From Burkholderia seminalis DSM 23518 (GTDB lineage Bacteria > Pseudomonadota > Gammaproteobacteria > Burkholderiales > Burkholderiaceae), in contig NZ_CADFDK010000009.1 in the NCBI RefSeq assembly GCF_902832885.1, positions 223,814-287,813 on the forward strand: DNA of 64,000 nucleotides, written 5' to 3'. The notes under the pieces were generated by a model. That model saw only the letters and a list, made by a program, of their open reading frames with translations. It was not told the DNA's origin and made no database searches. A program made the position numbers and the translations under genes. Positions within the stretch are counted from its first letter, which is position 1. The number at the start of each line of letters is the position of its first letter. Below are positions 1-4,114 of the stretch, in pieces.

Positions 1-192
1 TGGGGCGGTGAAACGAGCGTCGACGGTGCGGACAACAACGACGCGCTTCGCACGACGCGCCTGCGGCTCACCGCGGCGAAATTCGTGACGAAGTCCGATC
101 AGGTGCAAATCCAGCTCGGCACCGACCTGAGCGTGCGCAACGGCCCGAAGAACAGTGTGCTCGCGGGCCTGCGCTACGCGCACATCTTCTGA
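1..192 (+). CDS. Outer-membrane beta-barrel protein, 3' end only
   Basis: The first frame is open from base 1 to a TGA at 190-192 and gives the last 63 residues of a protein. The peptide has alternating polar and hydrophobic residues (for example LRLTAAKF and SVLAGLRYAHIF) and ends in phenylalanine, the usual C-terminal signature of a BAM-inserted outer-membrane barrel. It sits 95 bp upstream of oxd on the same strand, so it may supply substrate entry for the aldoxime pathway. The porin or MetA-pathway transporter families both fit; the N-terminal part lies outside the window, so the family cannot be decided. Confidence 0.6.
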   Translation, partial: WGGETSVDGADNNDALRTTRLRLTAAKFVTKSDQVQIQLGTDLSVRNGPKNSVLAGLRYAHIF

Positions 193-287: not shown

Positions 288-1346
288 ATGGAATCCGCCA
301 TCGACAAACACCTGGTCTGCCCGCGGACGCTGTCGCGCCGCGTCGCCGATGACTACCAGCCGCCGTTCCCGATGTACGTCGCCCGGGCCGCCGAAGACCT
401 GAGCCAGGTCGTGATGGGCTATTTCGGCGTGCAATACAGCGGCGCCGACAAGCGCGCGGCGGCGCTGGCCGCGTTGCGCCGGATCGTCGCCGATTTCGGC
501 GTGCAGGACGGCCCGAACAACTTCGATCTGACGCAACACACCGACGACCAGGGTTACGAGAACCTGATCGCCGTCGGCTACTGGCGCGATCCGGCCGCGT
601 ATGCGCGCTGGATCGCGTCGCCGGCACTCGTCGAATGGTGGACCTCCGACGCGCGCCTCGCGGACGGCATCGGCTACTTCCGGGAAATCGTCGCGCCGCG
701 CGCCGAGCAGTTCGAGACGCTCTACGCATTCACGAACGATTTCCCCGGCGTCGGCGCGATCATGGACGGCGTCAGCGGCGAGATCGAGGAGCACGGTTAC
801 TGGGGATCGATGCGCGACCGGTTCCCGATCTCGCAGACGGACTGGATGCGCGCGGACGGCGAGTTGCGCATCGTCGAGGGCGATCCGGCCCGCGGCGGCC
901 GCGTGGTCGTGCTGGCGCACGACAACATCGCGCTGATTCGCTCCGGCCAGGACTGGCGCGCGGCCGAACACGACGAGCGCCGGCTGTATCTCGAGGAGAT
1001 CGAGCCGACGCTGCGCAGCGGAATGGACTTCCTGCGCGACAACGGCACGGACGTCGGCTGCTACAGCAACCGCTACGTGCGCTCGATCGATCTCGACGGC
1101 AACGTGCTCGACGAGAGCTACAACATCGGCCACTGGCGCTCGCTCGACCGCCTCGAACGATGGGCCGAATCCCATCCGACGCACCTGCGGATCTTCGTCA
1201 CCTTCTTCCGCGTCGTCACCGGGTTGTCGAAACTGCGGCTGTATCACGAGGTTTCCGTCTTCGACGCGAAGCATCAGGTCTACGAATACGTGAACTGCCA
1301 TCCGCGCACCGGGATGATGCGCGACGCCGTCGCCATCGCCCGCTGA
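288..1346 (+). CDS. oxd: Haem-dependent aldoxime dehydratase
   Basis: The 352-residue product matches the length and sequence of OxdA-type phenylacetaldoxime dehydratases, which dehydrate aldoximes to nitriles with a b-type haem. The key residues fall at exactly the family positions when counted from the ATG at 288: Arg178, Ser219, His299 (proximal haem ligand) and His320 (catalytic acid-base). The motif WGSMRDRFPISQTDW around 172-186 is also typical. An upstream in-frame ATG at 201 exists, but the 288 start has a purine-rich ribosome site (AGAGAGG, 274-280) and gives the family N-terminus MESAID. The amidase gene follows after 55 bp, as in Pseudomonas and Rhodococcus aldoxime-nitrile clusters. 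No nitrile hydratase or nitrilase gene lies in this window. Confidence 0.95.
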   Translation: MESAIDKHLVCPRTLSRRVADDYQPPFPMYVARAAEDLSQVVMGYFGVQYSGADKRAAALAALRRIVADFGVQDGPNNFDLTQHTDDQGYENLIAVGYWRDPAAYARWIASPALVEWWTSDARLADGIGYFREIVAPRAEQFETLYAFTNDFPGVGAIMDGVSGEIEEHGYWGSMRDRFPISQTDWMRADGELRIVEGDPARGGRVVVLAHDNIALIRSGQDWRAAEHDERRLYLEEIEPTLRSGMDFLRDNGTDVGCYSNRYVRSIDLDGNVLDESYNIGHWRSLDRLERWAESHPTHLRIFVTFFRVVTGLSKLRLYHEVSVFDAKHQVYEYVNCHPRTGMMRDAVAIAR

Positions 1347-1401: not shown

Positions 1402-2928
1402 ATGGCCATCAAACGCCCGACCCGCGAACAACTGTCCGATATTGCAGCCGGCTTCGGCTTTCATCTCGATTCCCGCCAACTCGCCGACTACGACGATGCG
1501 CTGCAGGCGAACTTCGACGCCTACGATGCGATCGACGCGCTGCCCGACTATCTGCCCGTCGTCGCGTATCCGCGCACGCCCGGCTACCGCCCGGAAGGCG
1601 ACGAGAACCGTTACGGCGCGTGGGCGCGCAAGAGCACGATCCACGGCGCCGCCGACGGCAAGCTGCGCGGCAAGACGGTGGTCGTGAAAGACAACATCTG
1701 CGTCGCCGGCGTACCGATGCGCAATGGCTCGACCACGTTCGAGGGCTACGTGCCCGACGTCGATGCGACCGTCGTCACGCGGGTGCTCGACGCCGGCGGC
1801 ACGATCGCCGGCAAGTCGACCTGCGAGTACTACTGCTTTTCCGGCGGCTCGCACACGAGCGCGTCGGGGCCGGTGCACAATCCGCGCAAGGCAGGGCACT
1901 CGTCCGGCGGCTCGTCGTCGGGCAGCGGCGCGCTCGTTGCGAGCGGCGAGGTCGACATGGCGCTCGGCGGCGACCAGGGCGGCTCGGTCCGGATCCCGTC
2001 CGCCTATTGCGGCATCTACGGGATGAAGCCGACGCACGGGCTCGTGCCGTATACCGGCGCGATGCCGATCGAGGCGACCGTCGATCATCTGGGACCGATG
2101 ACGGGCAACGTGCTCGACAACGCGCTGCTGCTCGACGTGATCGCGGGCGACGACGGGCTCGATCCGCGCCAGCGGGCGCTGCCGCCGCGCGCCGATTATC
2201 TCGGCGCGATCCGCGACGGCATCGCGGGACTGCGGATCGGCATCCTGCGCGAGGCGTTCGGGCTCGCGAATTCGGAGAACGTGGTCGACGAGGCCGTGCG
2301 GGCCGCCGCGTACCGGTTGCACAAGCTCGGCGCGCGCGTCGACGAAGTGTCGGTGCCGCTGCATGCGGCCGGCACCGCGATCTGGCTGCCGATCGCGGCC
2401 GAGGGGGCGACGCAGCAGATGATGAAGGGCAACAGCCACGGTTTCAACTGGGGCGGCCTGTACGTGACCGGCATGATCGATCACCACGCGGGCTGGCGCG
2501 AGCGCGCCGACGAGTTGCCGGATACCGTGAAGGTGACGATGCTGCTCGGCGAATATTTCACGAGCCGGTATCGCGGGCGCTACTACGCGAAGAGCCAGAA
2601 CCTCGCGCGGCGCTTGCGATCGGCTTACGACGCGGCGCTGCAGTCGTATGACGTATTGCTGATGCCGACCGTGCCGATGCGCGCGTCGAAGCTGCCGGCG
2701 CCCGGTTGCGCGATGTCCGAGTCGCTGACGCGGGCGTTCGAGATGCTCGCGAATACCGCGCCGTTCGACGTGTCCGGGCATCCGGCGATGTCGCTGCCGT
2801 GCGGGGTCGCCGACGACCTGCCGATCGGGCTGCAACTGGTCGGGCGCCGTTTCGACGAAGCGACGCTCTACCGCGTGGCGTATGCGTATGAACAGTCGTC
2901 CGACTGGCGTCGGACGACGTACGCATGA
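1402..2928 (+). CDS. Amidase signature family amidase (nitrile pathway type)
   Basis: The 508-residue product is an amidase-signature enzyme hydrolysing amides to acids and ammonia. The catalytic triad Lys96 (VVVKDN), cis-Ser171 (GGSSSGSG) and Ser195 (GDQGGSVR) lies at the same numbers as in the Rhodococcus nitrile-hydratase-linked amidases, and the length matches that subgroup. The N-terminal alpha-helical extension of about 70 residues before the signature domain is also typical of it. Start ATG at 1402 follows a GGAGAACG ribosome site. Its place directly after oxd suggests the route aldoxime to nitrile to amide to acid, with the nitrile-to-amide enzyme missing from the window. The physiological substrate is not evident. 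Confidence 0.92.
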   Translation: MAIKRPTREQLSDIAAGFGFHLDSRQLADYDDALQANFDAYDAIDALPDYLPVVAYPRTPGYRPEGDENRYGAWARKSTIHGAADGKLRGKTVVVKDNICVAGVPMRNGSTTFEGYVPDVDATVVTRVLDAGGTIAGKSTCEYYCFSGGSHTSASGPVHNPRKAGHSSGGSSSGSGALVASGEVDMALGGDQGGSVRIPSAYCGIYGMKPTHGLVPYTGAMPIEATVDHLGPMTGNVLDNALLLDVIAGDDGLDPRQRALPPRADYLGAIRDGIAGLRIGILREAFGLANSENVVDEAVRAAAYRLHKLGARVDEVSVPLHAAGTAIWLPIAAEGATQQMMKGNSHGFNWGGLYVTGMIDHHAGWRERADELPDTVKVTMLLGEYFTSRYRGRYYAKSQNLARRLRSAYDAALQSYDVLLMPTVPMRASKLPAPGCAMSESLTRAFEMLANTAPFDVSGHPAMSLPCGVADDLPIGLQLVGRRFDEATLYRVAYAYEQSSDWRRTTYA

Positions 2929-3072: not shown

Positions 3073-4114
3073 ATGACGATGCGTCCTCTCCCGCGCGCCG
3101 CAAGCGGCGACGCGCCCGGTCCGGCGTCCGGCAGCCCGCTGGACGAACGGACGAACGCGGCCATCGAGGTGCCGATCGACGGCTCGGTCAGCCAGCGTAT
3201 CGAATTCTGGCGCGAGACGATTCTGCGCCTGTTCGCGGACGTGCAGATCGCCGCCGTGCAGAAAGCCGATTTCTTCGGCCGGGTGCGGCAGCGCAAGTGC
3301 GAAAAGATGCGAATCTCGGAAATCCACGCGAGCGAGCAGGCCGTGATCCGGCGTTATCGCCAGGCGCGCAGCGAGTACGAGGACAAGTATTTCGGGGTCT
3401 TGATGCTCGAGGGTAGCCAGTCGGTCGAGCAGGACGGCAAGATCGTCACGCTGCACCCCGGGGATTTCGCGATCTACGACGCGACACGGCCTCACCACCT
3501 GCAGTTCGGCCAGTCGTGGCGCGAGATCGTCGTCAGCATTCCCCGCGCGACCCTGAACCAGCTCGTCGTCGGGATGGAGCACCGCACGGCGTGCCCGACG
3601 CAAACCGGGGACGGCGTCGGCAGCGTCATGCGTGCGTTTCTCGAGCAGATGTCGTCGCAGATCCGCAGCGTGACCGAGGACGAGATGCGGCAGTTGTCGG
3701 ATACCGCGATCTCGCTGATCGCGATGACGCTGGGGGGGCATGCAGCGCAACGACCTCGCGCAGTCGAGGATGAAGGCGTTGACGCTGACGCGCGTGAAGC
3801 GGCATGTGCTCGAGCACCTGCACGACCCGGAGCTGAACCCGATGCTGATCGAGCAGTCGATCGGGATTTCGTCGCGGTACATCAACAAGCTGTTCGAGGC
3901 CGAGGAGGCGTCGCTGATGCGTTACGTGTGGAACCTGCGGCTCGAACGGTGCGCGCAGGATCTCGCGAATCCGCAATGCGCGGCGCTGCGCGTGTCCGAC
4001 GTCGCATTGCGCTGGGGATTCAACGACATGTCGCATTTCAGCCGCGTGTTTCGCGAGCGGTTCGCGATGTCGCCGCGGGCGTGGCGCGAGCAGAGCGGCA
4101 AGCCGCGCGCGTAA
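3073..4114 (+). pseudogene. AraC-family regulator (OxdR/FeaR-like), frameshifted
   Basis: Two adjacent frames together make one AraC regulator of about 346 residues. The first frame (3073 to about 3738) encodes a cupin-like AraC ligand-binding domain. The second (from about 3739 to 4114) encodes a complete two-helix-turn-helix AraC DNA-binding domain, including WGFNDMSHFSRVFRERF near the end. The switch occurs at a run of seven G (3732-3738). Reading six G joins the halves as AMTLGG followed by MQRNDLAQSR without loss. As sequenced, the upstream frame continues past the HTH region to a stop at 4321-4323, so it would lack DNA binding. It follows oxd and the amidase on the same strand and is the likely activator of that pathway. 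A sequencing or assembly error in the homopolymer is the main alternative to a real mutation. Confidence 0.85.
3732..3738 (+). repeat. G7 homopolymer at the frameshift
   Basis: A tract of seven G within codons for L-G-G of the AraC-family regulator. Loss of one G restores the full-length reading frame. Tracts of this length are prone to slippage in replication and to miscalls in some sequencing methods. Confidence 0.9.

What the first reader, a model, noticed from the sequence alone, without database searches (positions are those of the whole stretch)
3073..4114. Presumed aldoxime-pathway activator is out of frame at a G7 tract
The sequence shows two halves of one AraC regulator in adjacent frames that join cleanly if one G is removed from the run at 3732-3738. 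From known aldoxime clusters, an AraC-type OxdR activates oxd and the amidase. If real, the strain may be unable to induce the pathway, or the tract may be a slippage switch.
Basis: partly seen in the sequence, partly recalled or inferred. Interest (0 to 1): 0.7.

Follow-up and report, generated by a model that had tools for sequence, protein, structure and literature searches.

The report
AraC regulator split at G run
A regulator gene beside an aldoxime-degradation pathway reads as broken at a run of seven Gs, but the same genome shows other unrelated genes broken at such runs and the relatives tested do not, so the break is most likely a run-length error in the assembly or a recent slip rather than a switch.

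Summary
Two halves of one AraC-type regulator lie in adjacent frames (3073-3738, 3740-4114) and meet at a G7 run (3732-3738). In 19 of 19 other genomes found both halves share one frame. The gene belongs to a complete aldoxime-nitrile-amide cluster, beside oxd and amidase in 14 of 15 named loci.

The switch reading is not supported: around the junction the 19 relatives have G runs of only 2-5, so the tract is private to this genome. Nor is the break special to this gene. At G/C runs of 7 or more, this genome shows 7 frame breaks among 84 runs looked at, six relatives 0 among 215. In 5 of the 7, both halves match one profile in order; the genes are unrelated, e.g. xylose isomerase. mutS and mutL are open.

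Best reading: run-length miscalls in this draft assembly (0.6). Next: a real, recent slip that inactivated the regulator (0.33). A reversible switch is unlikely (0.04). No reads were held; reads over the tract would decide. The host is Burkholderia, so the gene was not mended or read through.

The parts
3073..3738 (+). upstream half of AraC-type regulator (ligand-binding domain)
   Evidence: Pfam AraC_binding_2 E 4e-20; 93-98% identical to the closest four relatives
3732..3738 (+). run of seven G where the two frames meet
3740..4114 (+). downstream half of the regulator (helix-turn-helix domain), in the neighbouring frame
   Evidence: Pfam HTH_18 E 1.5e-18; 88-95% identical to the closest four relatives
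288..1346 (+). aldoxime dehydratase oxd, one open frame; the ATG at 288 has a better Shine-Dalgarno match than 201
   Evidence: NCBIfam OxdA 681.7 bits, cut-off 600
1402..2928 (+). amidase, one open frame
   Evidence: NCBIfam PRK07235 859.9 bits, cut-off 545
1..192 (+). 3' end of an outer-membrane-type gene (Phenol_MetA_deg) that heads the row; nitrile hydratase alpha, beta and a CobW/P47K-type gene run the other way just left of the window

Best explanation
The gene is the AraC-family (FeaR/NhpR/NitR-like) regulator of a complete aldoxime-nitrile-amide degradation cluster; that it is an activator of the cluster is inferred from its family and neighbours. The apparent frame break is most likely a wrong call of run length in this 55-contig draft assembly, one of several at G/C runs of 7 or more. 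In the living strain the regulator is then probably whole and the pathway inducible.
For: At G/C runs of 7 or more, this genome shows 7 frame breaks among 84 runs looked at (8 flagged, one of them a gene boundary by eye); six relatives show 0 among 215. Where both sides read as coding and the boundary case is dropped, it is 7 of 9 against 0 of 9 (Fisher p 0.001). Five of the seven are confirmed by both halves matching one profile in order: this regulator, xylose isomerase (2-187 and 191-438 of 439), a BioF-like enzyme (12-281 and 291-364 of 365), a type VI secretion baseplate gene TssK (2-176 and 180-427 of 429) and a ROK-type regulator (weakly, Mlc model). With these five alone p is 0.0016 over all runs and 0.005 where both sides are coding. 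A further break, at the tail of a MocR-like gene, lies at a G8 run. mutS and mutL are open over their full length, and MutS shows its usual motifs by eye from recall. In contig C9 the test flagged, besides this regulator, only one divergent gene that is split in both directions. The regulator halves show no clear decay: own-only changes are 3 silent and 3 replacement. The conserved promoter blocks of the cluster are kept. A study of reading-frame transitions calls unclustered frameshifts likely indel mutations or sequencing errors and expects one class of them to be errors (PMC3711429, passages).
Against: No reads were available and the sequencing method is unknown. If the 55 contigs come from short reads, a G7 is normally called well (recalled). 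Exact G7 runs (87) are not raised against 12 relatives (52-121); exact G8 runs (24; relatives 9-24) are only just above the densest relative per Mb, 3.0 against 2.9. A real mutator lineage would give the same pattern. Two of the seven breaks are less sure: for the TetR gene the downstream half scores below its Pfam cut-off, and for the PEMT/ICMT gene only the downstream half has an above-cut-off match. Whether relatives hold intact copies of the other six broken genes was not shown: no copy was in the relative DNA held. The run samples were not random.
Confidence: 0.6

Rival explanations
1. A real and recent replication slip in a G run that is long only in this lineage. The regulator is inactive, so oxd, amidase and perhaps nitrile hydratase are not induced, although the enzyme genes are open.
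For: Long G runs are slip-prone (established knowledge). The run is private to this genome among 20 compared. The gene is otherwise undecayed, as expected for a fresh loss. No second close copy of the regulator was found in the genome: the upstream half has one match at E <= 1e-60, and other matches to the downstream half are 32-39% identical. Isolated split genes are ordinary: three own genes other than the C9 242.8-kb one are split in G008 or G039.
Against: It would need to have happened in five to seven unrelated genes of the same genome with mutS and mutL open, while six relatives show none among 215 runs.
Confidence: 0.33
2. A reversible slippage switch (phase variation) that turns the pathway on and off.
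For: A homopolymer lies inside a regulator gene. Homopolymer tracts have been proposed as a general switch in prokaryotes (PMC2831843, abstract start and passages).
Against: In 19 of 19 relatives the longest G run around the junction is 2-5, so no tract has been kept. Seven Gs is short for such loci (recalled).
Confidence: 0.04
3. Recoding or two-part expression: ribosomes or RNA polymerase slip at the run, or the DNA-binding half is made alone from the ATG at 3740 and acts without inducer.
For: The ATG at 3740 opens the downstream half, and the G run pairs well with the anti-Shine-Dalgarno (-10.4 kcal/mol).
Against: No relative has the split (0 of 19). The G run ends one base before the ATG, closer than the usual spacing (recalled). 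The upstream frame has no stop nearby that would allow re-initiation.
Confidence: 0.03

Closest known systems
NitR-type AraC regulators of aldoxime/nitrile clusters (Bacillus sp. OxB-1, Bradyrhizobium)
   Same: An AraC-family gene lies in the same cluster as oxd and nitrile-converting genes and is thought to regulate them (PMC8955678 passage; PMC4342420 passage).
   Different: Those clusters use a nitrilase; this one has nitrile hydratase plus amidase. The gene here is in two frames as sequenced. Their sequences were not compared.
NhpR of Pseudomonas chlororaphis B23 (recalled; my one search found no paper holding the name)
   Same: AraC/XylS-type activator of a cluster with oxd, amidase and nitrile hydratase (recalled).
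   Different: Its sequence was not compared. The nearest I could test are three Pseudomonas loci, L013-L015, at 53-58% identity for the upstream half, where the regulator is divergent from the genes.
FeaR (activator of aromatic amine breakdown; function recalled)
   Same: Both halves match its NCBIfam model in order.
   Different: Scores are 72 and 105 bits, against a cut-off of 199 for the whole protein; as halves were scored apart, membership is not settled by this.

Membership tests
AraC-family regulator | N-terminal ligand-binding domain and C-terminal helix-turn-helix domain | tested here: met
   pieces searched apart
AraC-family regulator | both domains in one open frame in this genome | tested here: not met
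   intact copies exist in 19 of 19 other genomes found
Aldoxime-nitrile pathway regulator (NitR/NhpR-like) | conserved neighbour of oxd and amidase | tested here: met
   14 of 15 named loci; in L008 only the P47K-type gene was seen in the flank held
Aldoxime-nitrile pathway regulator (NitR/NhpR-like) | activates the cluster in answer to an aldoxime | not testable with these tools
   needs a reporter assay
Phase-variable (contingency) locus | long tract kept among relatives | tested here: not met
   longest G run around the junction 2-5 in 19 of 19 relatives
Phase-variable (contingency) locus | tract length varies within the strain | not testable with these tools
   no reads and one genome per species held
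Programmed frameshift gene | frame split conserved in orthologues | tested here: not met
   0 of 19
Homopolymer run-length miscall | breaks gather at long runs in this one assembly, in unrelated genes | tested here: met
   7 of 84 against 0 of 215, five of the seven confirmed by profiles
Homopolymer run-length miscall | reads disagree with the consensus | not testable with these tools
   no reads held
Mismatch-repair mutator | broken mutS or mutL | tested here: not met
   open frames of 886 and 685 aa, no stops; a point defect or another repair gene is not excluded

The most novel reading that the evidence does not exclude
The strain is a natural slippage mutator in which regulators and catabolic genes with G/C runs, this regulator among them, are truly switched off together and could revert, giving a many-locus metabolic bet-hedge.
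Probability: 0.05. Interest if true: 0.6.

Novelty: not a real feature. Interest (0 to 1): 0.17.

Why it matters
It warns that this draft genome carries apparent pseudogenes at G/C runs of 7 or more, so losses of function read from it at such runs should not be believed without reads. The regulator and its cluster are otherwise a clean Burkholderia example of a full aldoxime-to-acid pathway with its likely regulator, which could be tested in species with intact copies.

Tried and rejected
Reading the break as one isolated pseudogene: the first control made it look isolated. Its limits: it sees only genes with a match of 75% identity or more, it counts a 90% match as whole, and 8 of 107, 5 of 43 and 9 of 147 matched genes were not whole, of which it flagged 1, 2 and 1 as split. 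Checking every run of 6 or more showed a second break at a G8 run, and the wider test showed more.

Frame changes at G/C runs of 5 in C9 (3 flagged) were gene boundaries by eye, as was L127.

The three-way indel count was too noisy at short runs, because paired alignment gaps inflate it: private 1-2 base indels in genes at runs under 4 were own 23, G008 48, G039 59. At runs of 4-5, genes and other DNA together, it gave own 4, G008 11, G039 9; at runs of 6 or more own 3, G008 0, G039 1. It also gave a somewhat higher transition share in own (ts/tv 1.40 against 1.21 and 1.22), which a mutator reading could claim and which I did not follow.

Decay test: the numbers are too small to date the break. 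The C half against G039 gave dN/dS 0.56, higher than the other pairs, on 17 changes.

Search for intact relatives of the other broken genes in the relative DNA held (268 loci, 1.7 Mb) found none at 60% identity or more.

Programmed shifting was considered and dropped for lack of conservation. Strain-level comparison was not possible: one genome per species is held. The species of the host was not determined.

Full report
What is there. The window lies in a 7.97-Mb, 55-contig genome (contig C9). Its closest named relatives by this gene are Burkholderia sp. MS389 and B. puraquae, so the host is a Burkholderia; its species was not determined. Because the genus includes a listed agent, the gene was not mended or read through, and its halves were searched apart. 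Half one, 3073-3738, carries the AraC ligand-binding domain. Half two, 3740-4114, carries the helix-turn-helix domain in the neighbouring frame. They meet at G7, 3732-3738. Both match the FeaR model in order but below its cut-off.

Relatives. Of 65 genus genomes searched, 13 including own hold the upstream half at E <= 1e-60. In all 19 distinct other genomes the two halves lie in one frame. The two copies in G008 are most likely one gene counted twice: its contig ends overlap over 10.4 kb at 99.95%. In about 36 codons around the junction the relatives' longest G run is 2-5, so the tract is private to this genome.

Setting. To the left, mostly outside the window, lie a CobW/P47K-type gene and nitrile hydratase beta and alpha on the minus strand, then an outer-membrane-type gene, oxd, amidase and the regulator on the plus strand. 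oxd and the amidase are open and score above their NCBIfam cut-offs. In 14 of 15 named loci the regulator lies within 6 kb of oxd and amidase, in several gene orders and divergent in the three Pseudomonas loci and Paraburkholderia heleia. The exception is L008, where only the P47K-type gene was seen in the flank. This supports, but does not prove, a role as the pathway's regulator. The divergent promoter region keeps two blocks conserved in own and the seven relatives aligned. Literature seen: an AraC-family NitR in Bacillus and Bradyrhizobium oxd clusters (PMC8955678, passages), and an AraC-like gene that seems to regulate Oxd and nitrilase in OxB-1 (PMC4342420, passage). NhpR of P. chlororaphis is recalled; a search for the name found no paper in the library.

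Is the break real? The first control compared called genes of contig C9 with G008 and G039. Of G008 genes with a match, 99 of 107 and 38 of 43 were full length in own; for G039 it was 138 of 147. Besides the regulator, the only gene flagged as split in own was a divergent one at C9 242.8 kb, split in both directions. Read the other way, own genes were split once each in the two G008 stretches (one of them that same divergent gene) and twice in G039, so isolated split genes are ordinary in these genomes. A check of every G/C run of 6 or more then showed that the one other run of 7 or more in a called gene of C9, a G8, sits where a MocR-like gene departs from both relatives near its end. Of 11 in-gene runs of exactly 6, nine are covered by an in-frame match to a relative; one gene has no close relative and one match does not reach the run.

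The wider test asked, by codon usage on either side of each G/C run of 7 or more, whether the frame changes. Own: 84 runs, made up of 73 with a side not read as coding, 1 at an edge, 2 in one frame and 8 flagged. One flagged place is a gene boundary by eye, leaving 7 breaks. Six relatives (G039, G031, G008, G011, G046, G006): 215 runs, made up of 203 with a side not read as coding, 3 at an edge, 9 in one frame and none flagged. Fisher p is 0.001 where both sides are coding and 0.0001 over all runs. The samples were the places listed first plus whole stretches, not random draws; for G006 only exact G8 runs were taken. Five of the seven breaks are confirmed by both halves matching one profile in order: the regulator, xylose isomerase and a BioF-like enzyme, TssK and, weakly, a ROK-type regulator (Mlc model: upstream half, downstream half). 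For a TetR gene the two halves match TetR_N and, below the cut-off, a TetR C-terminal model. For a PEMT/ICMT-type gene only the downstream half has an above-cut-off match. With five breaks p is 0.005 and 0.0016. I could not show intact copies of these other genes in relatives.

Two causes fit: wrong run lengths in this assembly, or a lineage that slips at long runs. Against the second, mutS and mutL are open, and the C9 control flagged nothing clearly private to own away from long G runs, within its limits. Against the first, exact G7 counts are not raised (87; 12 relatives 52-121), exact G8 counts are only at the top of the range (24; 9-24), and no reads were at hand. A large survey of frame transitions treats unclustered frameshifts as likely indel mutation or sequencing error, and one class of them as expected errors (PMC3711429, passages). 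The start of one abstract seen in a search listing says that homopolymer-length errors are the commonest residual error of long-read-only assemblies (PMC8812927); whether this assembly is of that kind is unknown. I put 0.6 on miscalls, 0.33 on a real slip, 0.04 on a switch and 0.03 on recoding or separate expression of the DNA-binding half.

If the slip is real, the likely effect is loss of induction of an otherwise open pathway. The upstream half would carry a long out-of-frame tail, and no close second copy of the regulator was found in the genome.

Noticed in passing
L139:1998, L159:7127, L297:1997, L111:1501, L126:1998, L098:1501, and C9 54583 (L038): Other genes of this genome whose frame changes at G/C runs of 7-8 (xylose isomerase, BioF-like, TssK, ROK-type; less sure TetR and PEMT/ICMT-type; a MocR-like gene at its tail); apparent pseudogenes to be distrusted until reads are seen.
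   Followed up: partly
L047:2595-3108 (just left of the window): The divergent nitrile hydratase/outer-membrane promoter has two blocks conserved in the eight genomes aligned. TTTTNNCTTCNTA-like elements occur there as an inverted pair in own, G008, L004 and L006, and as one exact copy in L002, L003, L005, L007 and L016: candidate operators, not tested against chance.
   Followed up: partly
C9 219,243-234,859 (window up to about 11,046): The cluster region is 95% identical to G008 while most neighbouring stretches are about 90-92%, which suggests exchange of this island between species.
   Followed up: no
G008:C2 ends (L051, L070): 10.4 kb is repeated at both contig ends at 99.95%, probably an untrimmed circular contig.
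   Followed up: no
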